Of a DNA stretch of 51,186 nt, positions 44,835 to 51,143 are shown one piece after another. Position numbers and translations under genes: made by a program. Position 1 is the stretch's first letter. The number at the start of each line of letters is the position of its first letter. Origin of the DNA: Candidatus Omnitrophota bacterium (GTDB taxonomy: Bacteria > Omnitrophota > Gorgyraeia > Pluralincolimonadales > Pluralincolimonadaceae); assembly GCA_030695925.1 (NCBI GenBank), contig JAUYOH010000120.1:1-51186 (forward strand), read 5' to 3'. The notes below the pieces were generated by a model that had not been told where the DNA came from, did not search any database, and worked only from the letters and a program-made list of their open reading frames with translations.

Positions 44835-45233
44835 ATGAAATTAATTAGTCGAGATACAGATTATGCCATGAAGGCGCTAAGGTATATTGCTAGCCAAAAT
44901 AATAAAATTATAACCGTTTCCGAGTTGGTTAAAAAATTACGGATACCCCATTCTTTTTTGAGGAAAATACTGCAGATACTAAACAAAAAAGGAATACTTA
45001 AGTCCTATAAAGGTCAAGGGGGAGGCTTTATGTTGGCGCTTAAACCCGATGAGATATTCTTGGTGGATTTAATAAGAATATTTCATGGGCCGTTTAAATT
45101 CAATGATTGTCTTTTTGTAAAAAAGAAATGTCCAGAGGTAAACAGTTGTATCTTAAAAAGAAAAATTGATAGCATAGAGCAGCACGTAATCGCAGAATTA
45201 AAATCTATCACTTTAGAGTCGCTTTTACAATAA
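44835..45233 (+). CDS. Rrf2-family regulator with Fe-S-type Cys triad
   Basis: DTDYAMKALRYIAS, LVKKLRIPHSFLRKILQILNKKGILKSYKGQGGGFMLA; CLFVKKKCPEVNSC (CX6CX5C). Confidence 0.9.
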   Translation: MKLISRDTDYAMKALRYIASQNNKIITVSELVKKLRIPHSFLRKILQILNKKGILKSYKGQGGGFMLALKPDEIFLVDLIRIFHGPFKFNDCLFVKKKCPEVNSCILKRKIDSIEQHVIAELKSITLESLLQ

Positions 45234-45237
45234 ATTT

Positions 45238-45756
45238 ATGCAAAATAAGACCATAGCCATAAAACAAAAACTCTTGCAGGAACTGGAATATTATTTCGGC
45301 AGTGATGCCAAAAGAATAAGTCATGCCCGTAAGGTAATGGGCTATGCCGAGGAATTACTCAAACGAGAGAAGGCAGATTGGCATATTGTGATTCCTGCCA
45401 GCATCCTTCATGATGTAGGGATAAAGGTAGCCGAGGAGAAATACGGATCGGCCGCAGGCCATTACCAGGAGACTGAAGGCCCTCCGATCGCGCGGGCTAT
45501 CCTTCTTAAAGTAGGATTTAAAAAAGAGGATATCGATGAGACATGCCAGATCATTGCCCATCACCACTCTCCGGGGAAGATCAATACACAGAACTTTAAG
45601 GTATTGTATGACGCGGATTGGCTGGTCAATTTAAAGGACGAGGTAGATGTGAAAGATAAAGAAAAATTAAGCGCGATGTTCGATAAAATTTTTCTTACGG
45701 AAACAGGAAAAAAGATAGCCAAACTAAAATATTTATCAAAACTAAACGCAGGCTAA
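45238..45756 (+). CDS. HD-domain phosphohydrolase
   Basis: ISHARKVMGYAEELL, ASILHDVGIKVAEEKYG, QIIAHHHSPG. Confidence 0.85.
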   Translation: MQNKTIAIKQKLLQELEYYFGSDAKRISHARKVMGYAEELLKREKADWHIVIPASILHDVGIKVAEEKYGSAAGHYQETEGPPIARAILLKVGFKKEDIDETCQIIAHHHSPGKINTQNFKVLYDADWLVNLKDEVDVKDKEKLSAMFDKIFLTETGKKIAKLKYLSKLNAG

Positions 45757-45775
45757 ATTATAATAGAGGCTAATA

Positions 45776-46591
45776 ATGGAAAAATATCTGAATGCCCCCA
45801 TAAAAGAAATTATCACGAAGTTTCCGGAAGTCGGCAGGATACTCGAGGAATATAGCATAGGCTGTGTTCCGTGCACCCTGGGGTCGTGTTTTTTAAAAGA
45901 TATAGTGGCCATACACAACCTTCCCGCAGATCAGGAGGCGCAGCTTATGTACCGGATAGAAAAAGCCATCTATCCGGACAGAGATATAAAGAAGCCGGAA
46001 GGTAAAGCTATGGCCCGAAAGGCGCCCGTCGGAAAGATACAATATTCCCCGCCGATAAAGAGACTGGTGGATGAGCATGCCTTAATAAAGAGATGGCTGG
46101 AACTGATACCGGAGTTCCTTGAAAAGATTGACATCGAATCGGAGGCATGCAGGCAGTTGGTACTGGACGGGCTTGATTTCATCCGATCCTACGCGGACAA
46201 ATTCCATCACGCGAAAGAGGAGGATATATTGTTTGGCTATACAGATAAGAATCTGGATATCATTAAGACTATACTCCAGGATCACGAGGCCGCGCGTAGC
46301 CATGTTAAGGCGGTATCGGAAGCCCTTAAGAGTAAGGATAGAAAAGCTATTGCTGAACACCTCAGCGCATACAGAGATCTTTTGACAGAGCACATAAAGA
46401 AGGAAGACGAGATATTATACCCATGGATCGATCGGGGTCTTTCTACGAGACAGGTGGGTGAGCTATTTGCCAAGTTCAATGAGGCGGAAGAGAGGATGGA
46501 TAAGGAGGTGGTAGATCGATGCGAAAAGTTCGCGTTGGAAGCAATGGGAAGAATCCAAAAAATGGAAAGAAAAAAGGAGGAAGTAAAATGA
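45776..46591 (+). CDS. Hemerythrin-domain protein with N-terminal Cys-containing domain (Ric-like)
   Basis: IKEIITKFPEVGRILEEYSIGCVPCTLGSC; DEHALIKRWLELIPEFL, KFHHAKEEDILF, DHEAARSHV, HIKKEDEILYPW. Confidence 0.85.
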   Translation: MEKYLNAPIKEIITKFPEVGRILEEYSIGCVPCTLGSCFLKDIVAIHNLPADQEAQLMYRIEKAIYPDRDIKKPEGKAMARKAPVGKIQYSPPIKRLVDEHALIKRWLELIPEFLEKIDIESEACRQLVLDGLDFIRSYADKFHHAKEEDILFGYTDKNLDIIKTILQDHEAARSHVKAVSEALKSKDRKAIAEHLSAYRDLLTEHIKKEDEILYPWIDRGLSTRQVGELFAKFNEAEERMDKEVVDRCEKFALEAMGRIQKMERKKEEVK

Positions 46592-47067
46592 GCGATATGG
46601 GAATAGGAGGATGCCCCGGTTCAAGGATGCAGGATTTTAGAGAGGACACAAAGGGTGGGAAAGAAGAAGGCGGAACGCGCCAGTCGCAGCTGAGGCAGTG
46701 GCCTATCCAGCTGCATTTGGTATCGCCCGAAGCGCCGTACTATCAAAAGGCGGATGTGCTTTTGGCCGCGGACTGCGTGGCCTATAGCGTGGGAGATTTC
46801 CACAAGGATTACCTTAAAGGAAAGAGCATCGCTATAGCCTGTCCGAAATTGGATGAGGGACAGGATGTATACGTTGAAAAAATACAATCTTTTATAGACG
46901 ACGCCAAGATTAATACCCTTACGGTCATGACGATGCAGGTGCCGTGTTGCGCGGGGCTGGTGGCCATAGCGCAGCAGGCCTTGCAGTCAGCTAAGAGGAA
47001 GATACCGGTTAAATCCATTGTCGTAAGTCTGCAGGGTGGGATTTTATCCGAGGAGTGGGTCACGTAA
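46588..47067 (+). CDS. Ferredoxin-associated C-terminal domain protein lacking 4Fe-4S motifs
   Basis: GIGGCPGSRMQDF, LRQWPIQLHLVSPEAPYYQKADVLLAADCVAY, ACPKLDEGQDVYVEKIQ; no ferredoxin CxxCxxC; ATG at 46588 after AGGAGG. Confidence 0.8.
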   Translation: MSDMGIGGCPGSRMQDFREDTKGGKEEGGTRQSQLRQWPIQLHLVSPEAPYYQKADVLLAADCVAYSVGDFHKDYLKGKSIAIACPKLDEGQDVYVEKIQSFIDDAKINTLTVMTMQVPCCAGLVAIAQQALQSAKRKIPVKSIVVSLQGGILSEEWVT

Positions 47068-47085
47068 AATCAGGGATAGATAGCG

Positions 47086-47748
47086 ATGAATTTTCTTGTA
47101 AAAAGAATGGTGATGAAGAGGTTGGATAAAGAGGACAAGAAATTTATTGCACCGCATTTTCGCGCAGGGGTGGTGACACCCCAGGATTTACGCAAGATAG
47201 CCGATGTATGCGAGAAATTCCCTGAGAGTAAAATAAAATTGGGCACAGAGATAATAATCGGAGGGATAACAGAAGAAACGAGAAATGAGGAATTCCGTCG
47301 GATACTTGATCTTCCCACGTTTAGCGTAGCAGGATTCTGCATAAGACCGGTAAAGATTTGTTCCGGTGGTTTCATCTGTGATAATAACCTCCAGGATTCA
47401 TTCTCTCTGGGCCTTAAACTCGATGAGAAATTTTCGGGTAGAATGCTACCCTTTAAGATGATTATTTCTATTTCTGGCTGTGCGAGATGCTGCTCGGAAC
47501 CTATGGTTAGAGATATAGGGATAGTGGCTTGTCGGCAGGGATATGCGATATTTGTTGGCGGAGCAGCAGGGGCAAGGCCGAGAATCGGCATAAGGCTTAT
47601 AGATAACCTTAGCGAGAGCGAGGTTATAGATACTATGGAGAGGATTATCGGTCTGTATGAAAAAATGGGCAGGACTCCTGAAAGACTGGGGATGTTTATA
47701 GAAAGGATAGGGTTTGAAAGATTCAAGCAGGAGTGTCAACCGAAGTAG
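47086..47748 (+). CDS. Small siroheme/4Fe-4S nitrite/sulfite reductase-like protein
   Basis: FCIRPVKICSGGFICDNNLQDS and MIISISGCARCCSEPMVRDIGIVAC: paired Cys motifs of the siroheme-Fe4S4 site. Confidence 0.78.
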   Translation: MNFLVKRMVMKRLDKEDKKFIAPHFRAGVVTPQDLRKIADVCEKFPESKIKLGTEIIIGGITEETRNEEFRRILDLPTFSVAGFCIRPVKICSGGFICDNNLQDSFSLGLKLDEKFSGRMLPFKMIISISGCARCCSEPMVRDIGIVACRQGYAIFVGGAAGARPRIGIRLIDNLSESEVIDTMERIIGLYEKMGRTPERLGMFIERIGFERFKQECQPK

Positions 47749-47873
47749 TGGCGAAATTTTAAGGCAAAAAGAAAGATACAGTAAAGTGGATTTTTAACAT
47801 CGATTTAACCTGCCCGTAATCTTAATTTAGAATAATCACGCTCCCTTCCTGAGCCTAAACATACCGTATTTTG

Positions 47874-47902
47874 TTGCCAAATCCACTTGAGGTTGATATA
47901 AT
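47874..47902 (+). promoter_or_regulatory. Sigma70-type promoter
   Basis: TTGCCA-N17-TATAAT upstream of 47977. Confidence 0.6.
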
Positions 47903-47976
47903 TTAGGGCACGAGTCTTTTGTCTGAAGCGGGAAGGCATATGGAAATAAAAATAGGTCAAAAAAAGGGGAAATAAA

Positions 47977-49737
47977 ATGGGAAGACGATATACCCTGCAG
48001 GACGTGAAAGAACCGCAACTCTATGAAGAGATGTTTAGGTATGACATGATCCCCAAGATTACCTTTGATAATGAGTTTGCGAAAGCTATCCCAGCCGAAG
48101 ATTACTGGATTACCTGTACTACCTTTCGCGACGGTCAGCAGGCGCGACCTCCCTATACAGTTGAGCAGATCGTCGAGCTGTATAAACTTATGCATAAATT
48201 GGGTGGGCCTAAAGGAATTATTAGGCAGTGCGAATTTTTCCTCTACAGCGATAAGGACAAAAAAGCGGTTGAGGAATGCATGAAGTTGGGCTATCGCTAT
48301 CCGGAAATAACCGGCTGGATAAGAGCAAAGAAAGAAGATTTTAAGTTAGTCAAGCAGATGGGCCTTAAGGAAACGGGAATTTTGACCTCCGCCTCAGATT
48401 ATCATATTTTTCTTAAACTTAATAAGAATCGCGCAGAGGCGATGCGGGATTACCTGGAGGTAGTGGATGCCGCTTTAGCGGAAGGAGTTGTACCGCGCTG
48501 CCATCTGGAAGACATTACCCGCGCTGATTTTTATGGTTTTATAATACCTTTCGTGCAGGAATTAATGCGGCGCGCGGATGAAAGCAAAATACCCATAAAG
48601 ATAAGGGCGTGTGATACATTGGGATACGGAGTTCCTTACCCTAACGCCACGCTTCCCCGCAGTGTGCCCAAGCTCATCCGTGGACTGATCGAAGAGGGCG
48701 GGGTGCCTTCGGAACGCCTTGAGTGGCACGGTCACAACGACTTTCATAAAGTATTGATTAATGCTGAAGCTGCCTGGCTCTATGGATGTTCTGCGGCAAA
48801 CGGCACGCTGTTGGGTTTTGGAGAGCGTACCGGCAATCCGCCGATAGAAGGCTTAATCATAGAATACGTCGCGTTAAAGGGAGAGTTTAACGGCGTTGAT
48901 ACCACGGTTATCACCGAGATCGGCGATTATTTTAAAAAGGCGATAAAAGAGTCTATTCCCAAAAATTATCCATTCGTAGGAGATGAGTTTAACGTAACCC
49001 GCGCAGGTATCCATGCGGACGGTGGCATCAAGAACGAAATGATTTATAATATCTTTGATACACGCAAGCTGCTTAATAGGCCGATGGGTGTGGGAATAAC
49101 CGATAAGTCGGGAATAGCGGGCATTGTCTACTGGATAAACAATTTCTTCGGCTTAAAAGGCCCGGATGCCTTAGATAAACAAAACCCGGGCGCTCAGAAA
49201 ATTAATGAATGGGTAACCGACGAATATAAAAACCAGAGAATAACCAGTATTTCAGACCAGGAAATGATAGAATTAACGAAGAAATATTTACCGGAACTAT
49301 TCGTTTCAGAACTGGAAGCGCTTAAAGCTAAAGCCAAAGATTTAGCCTATGAGCTGATTTCAGATGTGGTTAAAGAACCGGATATTATGTCTATGGACCC
49401 TGATAAACAAGAGCCCATCTTACAGAAGGTGATGGACAATAACCCGTTTATTAAGCTCATTTATATCACTGATGCTGCCGGTAGAAAAGTTACAAAAAAT
49501 ATTACTCAGCAAAAAGACGTCGAACTTTATAGACAGAAATTACAGGAGTACGGGGATTTTTCGGATCGCGCATGGTTTAAGGAAGTCATAGCGCAACGAA
49601 AGGTTTATTTTAGCGATCTCTATACTTCCAAAGTTACCGAACTTTTATGTATTACCGTCTCCGCGCCGATCCTTAGCAAAGAGAATAATATTTTAGGCGT
49701 TTTGGGGATTGATATTAAGTTTGACGATCTAATTTAA
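47977..49737 (+). CDS. LeuA/homocitrate-synthase superfamily enzyme (Re-citrate synthase-like) with C-terminal Cache-like domain
   Basis: ITCTTFRDGQQARPPYTVEQIVELYKLMHKLGG, CDTLGYGVPYPNATLPRS, EWHGHNDFHKVLINAEAAWLYGCSAANGTLLGFGERTGNPPIE, TRAGIHADGG; C-terminal DRAWFKEVIAQRKVYFSDLYTSKVTELLCITVSAPILSKENNILGVLGIDIKFDDL. Confidence 0.85.
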   Translation: MGRRYTLQDVKEPQLYEEMFRYDMIPKITFDNEFAKAIPAEDYWITCTTFRDGQQARPPYTVEQIVELYKLMHKLGGPKGIIRQCEFFLYSDKDKKAVEECMKLGYRYPEITGWIRAKKEDFKLVKQMGLKETGILTSASDYHIFLKLNKNRAEAMRDYLEVVDAALAEGVVPRCHLEDITRADFYGFIIPFVQELMRRADESKIPIKIRACDTLGYGVPYPNATLPRSVPKLIRGLIEEGGVPSERLEWHGHNDFHKVLINAEAAWLYGCSAANGTLLGFGERTGNPPIEGLIIEYVALKGEFNGVDTTVITEIGDYFKKAIKESIPKNYPFVGDEFNVTRAGIHADGGIKNEMIYNIFDTRKLLNRPMGVGITDKSGIAGIVYWINNFFGLKGPDALDKQNPGAQKINEWVTDEYKNQRITSISDQEMIELTKKYLPELFVSELEALKAKAKDLAYELISDVVKEPDIMSMDPDKQEPILQKVMDNNPFIKLIYITDAAGRKVTKNITQQKDVELYRQKLQEYGDFSDRAWFKEVIAQRKVYFSDLYTSKVTELLCITVSAPILSKENNILGVLGIDIKFDDLI

Positions 49738-49755
49738 CGTAAAATACGGTCCTGA

Positions 49756-49983
49756 ATGGAAGAGGTCGATAAAAAACAAAAGGCGCGCGCCGAAATAACC
49801 GTAAATGAAAAATGGTGCAAAAAGTGCGGCATCTGTATCGCCTTTTGTCCTAAAGGAGTATTTGTCGCCGATAAGTTTGGCAAACCTATAGTGAAGTATC
49901 CTGAGCAGTGCATCAAATGCATGCTCTGCGTGGTAAGGTGTCCCGATTTTGCGGTGGATGTGAAAAAACTGGATTCAGAATAA
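49756..49983 (+). CDS. korD: 2x4Fe-4S ferredoxin subunit (KorD-like)
   Basis: WCKKCGICIAFCPKGVFV and QCIKCMLCVVRCPDFAV. Confidence 0.9.
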   Translation: MEEVDKKQKARAEITVNEKWCKKCGICIAFCPKGVFVADKFGKPIVKYPEQCIKCMLCVVRCPDFAVDVKKLDSE

Positions 49984-49988
49984 AATAG

Positions 49989-51143
49989 ATGCTTTCTATT
50001 GAAACGAAAGACAGAATAAAGTTCATCCAGGGCAATGAGGCCTGTGCGGAGGCCGCGATAGCCGGCGGAGTGCGTTTTTTTGCCGGTTATCCCATAACTC
50101 CTTCTTCGGAGATCGCGGAAATTCTTTCTAAGAGGTTACCGCAAGAGGGCGGCAAATTTATCCAGATGGAGGATGAGATTGCCAGCATGGGAGCTATCCT
50201 GGGAGCATCGTTGGCGGGCTTAAAAACGATGACCGCGACCTCAGGTCCCGGTTTTTCTTTAAAACAGGAACTTATTGGTTACGCCTGTCTTTGCGAGATT
50301 CCCTGTGTAGTCGTGAATGTGCAGAGGGGAGGCCCGTCTACGGGGCTGCCCACTTCTCCCTCGCAGTCCGACGTGATGCAGTCCCGATGGGGCACACACG
50401 GAGATCATCCCGCTGTCGTCCTTTGTCCTTCTTCAGTCGCAGAGATGTATGAGCTGACTGTGCAAGCGATCAATTTCTCTGAGAGTTTACGTACCCCGGT
50501 TATTTTACTATCGGATGAGGTCGTAGCCCATTTATACGAGAAAGTCGAATTTCCCGAAGCTGCGGATTTGAAACTATCGGATAGGCCCCGGCCTAAAGGG
50601 GGTCCCGGTGAAAAATATTTACCATTTGCCGCGGATTCGATTAATGGCGTCCCCCGTATTGCCAATTTTGGAGAGGGATTTCATTTTAATGTTACCGGAT
50701 TAATCCATGACCTCGACGGATTTCCCACGACCGATCCCGGAAAGACCGAGAATCTGATCAGGCGGTTGCACGAGAAGGTTAATTCACGGATTAGGGAGAT
50801 CTGTTTGTTTGAAACTGAGAATTTAGAAGATGCAACCGTAGTCCTGTGCTCTTATGGGGCGACCGTAAGGTCAGCCAGGCACGCTGCGAGGGAAGCGGGA
50901 AAGAGAGGACTAAAAGTCGGTTCGATCAAACTGAAGACCCTTTGGCCTTTTCCGGATTTTGTTTTTGAAAGATTAGGGAAAAAGGTCAAGACCGTGATCG
51001 TCTGCGAGATGAACATGGGTCAATTGATAAGAGAGGTGGAGCGGGCTTCAAGGGGACGTTTCAAAGTCGCGGGCGTGAATATTTCCCGCGGCACTATGAT
51101 CACGCCTCAGGAGATATTGGACAAAATTGAAAGAGCTGGCTGA
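49989..51143 (+). CDS. korA: 2-oxoacid:ferredoxin oxidoreductase alpha subunit
   Basis: GNEACAEAAIAGGVRFFAGYPITPSSEIAEIL, QMEDEIASMGAILGASLAGLKTMTATSGPGFSL. Confidence 0.94.
   Translation: MLSIETKDRIKFIQGNEACAEAAIAGGVRFFAGYPITPSSEIAEILSKRLPQEGGKFIQMEDEIASMGAILGASLAGLKTMTATSGPGFSLKQELIGYACLCEIPCVVVNVQRGGPSTGLPTSPSQSDVMQSRWGTHGDHPAVVLCPSSVAEMYELTVQAINFSESLRTPVILLSDEVVAHLYEKVEFPEAADLKLSDRPRPKGGPGEKYLPFAADSINGVPRIANFGEGFHFNVTGLIHDLDGFPTTDPGKTENLIRRLHEKVNSRIREICLFETENLEDATVVLCSYGATVRSARHAAREAGKRGLKVGSIKLKTLWPFPDFVFERLGKKVKTVIVCEMNMGQLIREVERASRGRFKVAGVNISRGTMITPQEILDKIERAG

What the first reader, a model, noticed from the sequence alone, without database searches (positions are those of the whole stretch)
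47977..49737. Soluble Re-citrate-synthase-like enzyme fused to a Cache/PDC-type sensor domain
A LeuA/homocitrate synthase superfamily TIM barrel is followed, from about 49410, by roughly 109 aa with the Cache signature (IKLIYITDAAGRKVT ... DRAWFKEVIAQRKVYFSDLYTSKVTELLCITVSAPILSKENNILGVLGIDI). Cache domains are usually extracytoplasmic receptor sensors, yet this protein has no evident signal or TM segment. The Cache-like domain sits where LeuA-type enzymes carry an allosteric domain, suggesting small-molecule feedback control.
Basis: partly seen in the sequence, partly recalled or inferred. Interest (0 to 1): 0.75.

Follow-up and report, generated by a model that had tools for sequence, protein, structure and literature searches.

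The report
Citrate synthase with built-in Cache sensor
A citrate-making enzyme used by many anaerobic bacteria carries, at its tail, a ligand-sensing domain normally found on the outside of chemotaxis receptors, which suggests that these cells control entry into the citrate-to-glutamate pathway with a borrowed receptor part that I found described in no paper.

Summary
ORF 47977-49737 (+, 586 aa) is an HMGL-like TIM barrel of the Re-citrate synthase type, followed by one Cache/PDC domain at residues ~475-586. Pfam scores it above cut-off, and AlphaFold/Foldseek place it with KinD, Tlp3 and PctC. There is no signal peptide or TM segment and no LeuA_dimer.

The fusion is not a local oddity. 71 of the 80 closest genome loci, from about ten phyla, carry it. 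So do 52 of 55 matches in Syntrophales, including a 3,179,300-bp chromosome that I take from memory to be Syntrophus aciditrophicus, source of a purified Re-citrate synthase. Short relatives stop exactly at the domain boundary.

94 of 101 fusions keep five of the six positions of the dCache amino-acid motif (R, W, F/Y, Y/F, D); the sixth is not kept. The genome has no Si-citrate synthase and no other dCache_1 domain. The same module also sits behind the signalling domain of chemoreceptors.

Best reading: Re-citrate synthase with an intracellular Cache sensor in the place of LeuA_dimer, probably binding an amino acid (glutamate is the obvious candidate) or a small carboxylate. Fusion, fold and motif are shown; ligand and allostery are inferred.

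The parts
47977..49737 (+). CDS, 586 aa: Re-citrate synthase-type enzyme with C-terminal Cache domain
   Evidence: ORF, Pfam, full-length homologs
48115..48924 (+). HMGL-like TIM barrel (residues 47-316) with invariant FRDGQQ (50-55) and HGHND (251-255)
   Evidence: Pfam PF00682 2e-23; invariant in 81 aligned rows; Foldseek homocitrate synthase 6ktq, 2zyf
48925..49308 (+). LeuA-superfamily C-terminal helical subdomains (residues 317-444), last part shared with short forms
   Evidence: AlphaFold helices; short forms end at the residue-444 equivalent
49309..49398 (+). helical connector, residues 445-474 (helix 445-464), present only in the long forms; its C-terminal part aligns with chemoreceptor tails carrying the same module
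49399..49734 (+). single Cache/PDC domain, residues 475-586
   Evidence: PF22673 and dCache_1 above cut-off; AlphaFold pLDDT 94.8, Foldseek KinD/Tlp3/YkuI/PctC
49567..49578 (+). R531-x-W533-F534: equivalent of PctA R126-x-W128-Y129 and of KinD R131
   Evidence: hmmsearch/phmmer alignments; R 96/101, W 101/101, F 100/101
49621..49623 (+). Y549: equivalent of PctA Y144
   Evidence: Y 86 + F 14 of 101
49654..49656 (+). T560: invariant, aligns with PctA T155
   Evidence: 101/101; PctA T155 named as pocket position in PMC11245519
49711..49713 (+). D579: equivalent of PctA D173
   Evidence: 101/101
49756..49983 (+). downstream 4Fe-4S ferredoxin, KorD/OorD-like
   Evidence: NCBIfam OorD/OGOR_delta 1e-11, below cut-offs
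49989..51143 (+). downstream 2-oxoacid:acceptor oxidoreductase alpha subunit (KorA-like)
   Evidence: NCBIfam NF006412, 539 bits against cut-off 411

Best explanation
The gene encodes a cytosolic Re-citrate synthase (acetyl-CoA + oxaloacetate to citrate) whose C-terminal regulatory slot, filled by LeuA_dimer in isopropylmalate/citramalate synthases and by RAM in archaeal homocitrate synthase, is filled instead by a single intracellular Cache (PDC) domain on a helical connector. Shown: enzyme fold and family, the fusion and its wide conservation, the PDC fold, absence of TM/signal, a clean modular boundary at residue ~444, and conservation of the ligand-contact positions R531, W533, Y549 and D579. 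Inferred: the Cache pocket binds an intracellular amino acid (carboxylate to R531, amino group to D579) or another small carboxylate, and binding is passed through helices 475-488 and 445-464 to the enzyme oligomer to tune citrate synthesis. Glutamate, the end product made from 2-oxoglutarate, is the most economical candidate for feedback.
For: Domains above curated cut-offs. Structure prediction and Foldseek. No Si-citrate synthase (PF00285) in the 94.6%-complete genome; aconitase-family genes are present; KorD/KorA-like genes lie directly downstream. 23 of 88 homologous loci have aconitase, isocitrate or malate dehydrogenase close by on the same strand. Long form in 71 of the 80 nearest genome loci and in 52 of 55 Syntrophales matches. 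Five positions of the published dCache_1AA motif (PMC10104139) conserved together in 94 of 101 fusions, D/W/T in all 101. The KinD pyruvate-site residue R131 (4jgp, 4jgq) aligns with R531. The same module sits behind the MCP signalling domain of chemoreceptors in Desulfovibrionales (5 of 5 scanned), i.e. it is used as a sensor elsewhere and on the cytoplasmic side. Short forms lack it entirely, with no remnant, so it is separable from catalysis.
Against: No ligand or regulation data. PctA Y121 has no aromatic equivalent at the aligned position (G526), and the domain is single, whereas dCache_1AA is a double Cache. Several Lentisphaerota/Spirochaetota/Fibrobacterota fusions have changed R531 or F534. 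Some genomes with the fusion also have a Si-citrate synthase (the genomes of L033, L040, L043), so the enzyme is not always the only citrate synthase. A single PDC domain could serve only for assembly.
Confidence: 0.62

Rival explanations
1. The Cache domain is a structural (dimerisation or assembly) module only, kept because the long-form oligomer needs it; no ligand is bound.
For: PDC domains often pack as dimers (established knowledge); LeuA-superfamily enzymes are oligomers; short forms work without it (inference).
Against: The ligand-contact positions R531, W533, Y549, T560 and D579 are among the most conserved of the domain, and the same module is attached to chemoreceptor signalling domains.
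Confidence: 0.2
2. The Cache domain senses a pathway carboxylate (pyruvate, oxaloacetate, 2-oxoglutarate, citrate) rather than an amino acid.
For: The nearest structure is KinD, solved with pyruvate, whose R131 aligns with R531; CitA and DctB are among the fold matches.
Against: D579, invariant in 101 fusions, matches the key aspartate D173 of amino-acid sensors and is not an Asp in the KinD alignment.
Confidence: 0.25
3. The enzyme is not a citrate synthase but another acyl-CoA/2-oxoacid condensing enzyme (homocitrate, citramalate or isopropylmalate synthase) with a Cache domain.
For: NCBIfam best hit is nifV_homocitr, but at 118 bits against a cut-off of 463; some fusion genomes also hold a Si-citrate synthase.
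Against: 57% identity over the full length to the G141 protein taken to be the characterised S. aciditrophicus Re-citrate synthase; no equivalog cut-off of the other enzymes is reached; aconitase/IDH/Kor context; the Kuenenia Re-CS candidate is 55% identical to C. kluyveri Re-CS (PMC8027424) and planctomycete relatives cluster here.
Confidence: 0.1
4. The fusion in this window is an assembly or binning artefact.
For: The MAG has 7.4% contamination; family-mates carry the short form and the same-genus genome G001 has an 87-89% match to those; KorA too has its close match outside the family.
Against: The same fusion occurs in dozens of independent assemblies including complete or isolate genomes (L047, L075, L086, L088, G141). 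An artefact could affect only which host owns this copy. Another gene on the contig matches same-genus and same-family genomes at 79-82%.
Confidence: 0.03

Closest known systems
Re-citrate synthase of Syntrophus aciditrophicus (SYN_02536; Kim et al. 2013, paper not held, facts from memory)
   Same: Same architecture if G141 (3,179,300 bp chromosome) is that genome: 629 aa, 71.8 kDa, 57% identity over the whole length including the Cache domain. The remembered tagged subunit mass of 72,892 Da fits.
   Different: To my recollection the Cache domain was not discussed there; the window copy is from Omnitrophota and lacks the ~25-aa tail after the Cache domain.
Re-citrate synthase of Clostridium kluyveri type (Li et al. 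2007) and the anammox candidate KSMBR1_RS10820 (PMC8027424)
   Same: Same TIM-barrel family; short forms in Planctomycetota are 61-64% identical to the window enzyme part.
   Different: The planctomycete relatives end near the residue-444 equivalent without a Cache domain.
LeuA_dimer-regulated isopropylmalate/citramalate synthases; RAM-bearing homocitrate synthase of Sulfolobus (6ktq is its catalytic domain)
   Same: TIM barrel, helical subdomains and an add-on domain at the C-terminus.
   Different: The add-on domain is an unrelated fold (PDC instead of LeuA_dimer or RAM).
dCache_1AA amino-acid sensors (PctA, Tlp3, CtaA)
   Same: PDC fold and five of six amino-acid motif positions.
   Different: Single PDC, cytosolic, no TM, Y121 position not aromatic.
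YkuI (EAL domain plus C-terminal YkuI_C Cache, intracellular)
   Same: Soluble protein with a C-terminal Cache domain (PMC4822843).
   Different: YkuI is a c-di-GMP signalling protein; the YkuI_C model is below cut-off here.
Desulfovibrionales MCPs with a Cache module after the signalling domain
   Same: Close relatives of the module, including part of the helical connector and the R-x-W-F/Y...D positions.
   Different: The output is chemotaxis signalling, not an enzyme.

Membership tests
Re-citrate synthase | HMGL-like/LeuA-superfamily TIM barrel with metal-binding HxH and FRDG motifs | tested here: met
   PF00682 2e-23; F50-Q55 and H251-D255 invariant in 81 rows
Re-citrate synthase | Orthology to a characterised Re-citrate synthase | tested here: inconclusive
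Re-citrate synthase | Stands in for an absent Si-citrate synthase | tested here: met
   No PF00285 in own genome nor in the other nine related genomes with this enzyme, against 25 of the remaining 89; not strict elsewhere
Re-citrate synthase | Re-face stereospecific citrate formation | not testable with these tools
   needs labelled acetyl-CoA and citrate lyase assay
Cache/PDC domain | Sequence profile above curated cut-off | tested here: met
   PF22673 64.5 bits (27), PF02743 49.3 bits (45)
Cache/PDC domain | PDC fold with long N-terminal helix | tested here: met
Cache/PDC domain | Extracytoplasmic, between two TM helices | tested here: not met
   no TM or signal; this feature is typical but not universal (78% extracellular, PMC4822843)
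Cache/PDC domain | Attached to a signalling output domain | tested here: not met
   partner is a metabolic enzyme; PMC4822843 states that Cache domains had been identified exclusively in proteins with signalling output domains
dCache_1AA amino-acid sensor | R126, W128, Y129, Y144, D173 equivalents | tested here: met
   R531, W533, F534 (aromatic), Y549, D579; 94 of 101 fusions
dCache_1AA amino-acid sensor | Y121 equivalent aromatic | tested here: not met
   G526; other residues in relatives
dCache_1AA amino-acid sensor | Double Cache (two PDC modules) | tested here: not met
   protein ends after the first PDC
dCache_1AA amino-acid sensor | Binds L-amino acids | not testable with these tools
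   needs ITC or thermal shift
LeuA_dimer-regulated synthase | LeuA_dimer domain at C-terminus | tested here: not met
   no LeuA_dimer match; PDC fold instead
YkuI_C | Profile above cut-off | tested here: not met
   20.5 and 23.1 bits against 26

The most novel reading that the evidence does not exclude
A central-carbon enzyme has taken over a chemoreceptor ligand-sensing module as its allosteric domain: Re-citrate synthases of about ten anaerobe-rich phyla are directly gated by an intracellular amino acid (probably glutamate) through a Cache domain, and the same cytosolic module feeds chemotaxis in Desulfovibrionales. This would be a new type of feedback control in the LeuA superfamily and, to my knowledge, the first Cache domain known to regulate a metabolic enzyme.
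Probability: 0.4. Interest if true: 0.8.

Novelty: new variant of a known kind. Interest (0 to 1): 0.62.

Why it matters
Cache domains are described as sensors that occur only in signal-transduction proteins (PMC4822843). Here one is part of citrate synthase in a broad set of sulfate reducers, syntrophs and uncultured anaerobes, where it would decide how much acetyl-CoA enters the citrate/glutamate branch. If ligand control is confirmed, it adds a regulatory fold to the LeuA superfamily, explains why some Re-citrate synthases are ~70 kDa and others ~50 kDa, and gives a ready assay, since one such enzyme has very probably already been purified.

Tried and rejected
LeuA_dimer or RAM fold at the C-terminus: rejected. 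Hidden TM or signal peptide: rejected. Chance or assembly fusion: rejected by dozens of independent full-length homologs. Recruitment from a local chemoreceptor: the genome has no other dCache_1 domain. Relics of the domain behind short-form genes: none found by tblastn. Strict replacement of Si-citrate synthase: not held up, both coexist in the genomes of L033, L040 and L043, and the exclusion in relatives (0 of 10 against 25 of 89) is only suggestive. Rooting the long/short history with a Deinococcus plasmid homolog: the outgroup branch is far too long to decide gain or loss. The amino-acid motif as proof of ligand: not accepted, because several other Cache domains aligned in the same genomes carry it too; the seven best-scoring PF22673 receptors there, read by eye, have no Arg before the W-Y/W-F pair. 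Literature searches for Cache with citrate synthase, homocitrate synthase or isopropylmalate synthase gave nothing relevant. The Kim 2013 and Marco-Urrea 2011 papers are not held. The plasmid search for a close relative gave only short Deinococcus homologs.

Full report
Observation. The ORF at 47977-49737 (+) is 586 aa. Pfam gives HMGL-like at 47-316 (2e-23), MCP-like_PDC_1 at 479-585 (1.5e-17) and dCache_1 at 473-585 (6e-13), all three above their curated cut-offs. NCBIfam hits in the enzyme part (nifV, LEU1_arch, leuA and others) are all far below their cut-offs, so it is not an equivalog of those enzymes. phmmer against solved structures finds homocitrate and isopropylmalate synthases for residues 38-362 and KinD/Tlp3/PctA sensor domains for residues 473-585. 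The protein has no hydrophobic segment of TM type (maximum 19-residue Kyte-Doolittle mean 1.2).

Structure. With an alignment of 81 homologs AlphaFold gives mean pLDDT 92.6; the Cache part alone, with 38 homologs, gives 94.8. Foldseek places the whole protein with homocitrate synthases (6ktq, 3ivs, 2zyf) and the isolated tail with PDC sensors: KinD (TM 0.73), Tlp3 with Leu/Ile/Val, YkuI, CtaA with Ile, PctC with GABA, CitA, DctB.

Distribution. The nearest 80 loci in the species-level genome collection hold 67 complete long forms, 4 long forms cut by contig ends, runs of N or an internal break, and 9 short forms. Long forms come from records labelled Omnitrophota, Nitrospirota, Desulfobacterota lineages, Spirochaetota, Lentisphaerota, Elusimicrobiota, Armatimonadota, Fibrobacterota, Auribacterota (Erginobacter) and Termititenax. 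In 80 genomes of the order around L040 (Syntrophales), 55 have the enzyme and 52 of these matches run to the end of the Cache domain; none ends at the short-form boundary. Short forms occur in Planctomycetota including Brocadia, Poribacteria, one Auribacterota and several Omnitrophota. They end at ...LPELFVSDEE or the like, equivalent to window residue ~444, and no Cache remnant lies downstream. On a tree of the enzyme part alone, short forms lie among long ones and the labels need only 4 changes against 13 in shuffles. Whether the domain was gained or lost cannot be decided because the only outgroup at hand is too distant.

Link to a characterised enzyme. Genome G141 has one 3,179,300-bp chromosome, the length I remember for S. 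aciditrophicus SB. Its homolog is 57% identical to the window protein over the whole length and carries the Cache domain; read from the second start it is 629 aa, 71,766 Da, or 72.8-73.0 kDa with a Strep-tag. From memory, the S. aciditrophicus Re-citrate synthase was purified as a homotetramer of 72,892-Da tagged subunits, 49% identical to the C. kluyveri enzyme. If so, the Cache-bearing form is a proven Re-citrate synthase. Independently, the Kuenenia candidate is reported as 55% identical to the C. kluyveri Re-citrate synthase (PMC8027424), and planctomycete relatives fall inside this family.

Metabolic context. The window genome has no PF00285 citrate synthase but has aconitase-family genes; KorD- and KorA-like genes follow directly. 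None of the ten related genomes with this enzyme, own genome included, has a Si-citrate synthase, against 25 of the other 89. Elsewhere both can coexist. In 23 of 88 loci aconitase, isocitrate dehydrogenase or malate dehydrogenase lies close by on the same strand. This fits citrate formation for 2-oxoglutarate/glutamate.

Pocket. The published amino-acid motif of dCache_1AA uses PctA R126 (ligand carboxylate), W128, Y129 (structural), Y144 and D173, plus Y121 (PMC10104139). Profile alignment with PctA gives R531, W533, F534, Y549 and D579, and G526 at Y121. All five are kept in 94 of 101 non-truncated fusions; W533, T560 and D579 in all 101; R531 in 96. KinD, solved with pyruvate, has its site residue R131 at R531 but no Asp at D579 in the alignment. 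I read this as favouring an alpha-amino acid over a plain carboxylate, with moderate confidence. The motif is not unique to the fusions: other aligned Cache domains in the same genomes have it, while the best-scoring PF22673 receptors there, read by eye, lack the Arg.

Origin of the module. The window genome has no other dCache_1 domain. In Desulfovibrionales the closest non-enzyme relatives are chemoreceptors in which the Cache module follows the MCP signalling domain, that is, on the cytoplasmic side; all five scanned show this order, and the shared stretch includes part of the helical connector. So this looks like a mobile intracellular sensor module. Upadhyay et al. (PMC4822843) describe Cache as principally extracellular and found only with signalling outputs, with YkuI_C and Diacid_rec as intracellular exceptions; an enzyme partner is therefore unusual.

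Ownership of this copy. Family-mates carry the short form, and the same-genus G001 fragment is 87-89% identical to those but only 69% to the window protein. KorA next door has its only close match, 70%, in G045 of another family, which also holds a 72% long-form enzyme. A gene 10 kb upstream matches G001 and G008 at 79-82%. The Re-CS/Kor block at the contig end was therefore probably exchanged between Omnitrophota lineages. A wrong join cannot be excluded in a MAG with 7.4% contamination, but it would not touch the fusion itself.

Verdict. A real, widespread and, as far as the held literature shows, undescribed architecture of a known enzyme. Allosteric sensing is the best-supported function but untested; the ligand class is a guess with structural support.

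Noticed in passing
L175, L218, L220, L221, L222, L223: Desulfovibrionales chemoreceptors carry the Cache module after the MCP signalling domain, i.e. at the cytoplasmic C-terminus, with the same R-x-W-F/Y...D positions.
   Followed up: partly
46519-47067 (+): 182-aa ORF two genes upstream with no Pfam or NCBIfam match, between a hemerythrin-domain protein and a siroheme protein.
   Followed up: no
47086-47748 (+): Orphan 220-aa nitrite/sulfite reductase-type (NIR_SIR) protein resembling the C-terminal part of NirB; no reductase partner was recognised among the neighbours scanned.
   Followed up: no
44835-51143 (+): The Re-citrate synthase and KorA here have their closest relatives in another Omnitrophota family (G045), while the window gene at 37128 matches same-genus and same-family genomes: probable lateral exchange or contig join in this end of the contig.
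   Followed up: partly
L149:1712-4290: Deinococcus wulumuqiensis plasmid pDrdI has a short Re-citrate-synthase-like gene (40% identity) divergent from an annotated citrate/2-methylcitrate synthase.
   Followed up: no
L069, L076, L084, L087, L092, L093: Lentisphaerota/Spirochaetota/Fibrobacterota fusions keep the Cache domain but have changed R531 (K/H/S) or F534 (L), some also Y549 to F: possible change or loss of ligand.
   Followed up: no
L077, L091, L099, L101: Long-form loci cut by contig ends, masked N runs or an internal break; they are counted as long forms but were set apart from the complete ones.
   Followed up: partly
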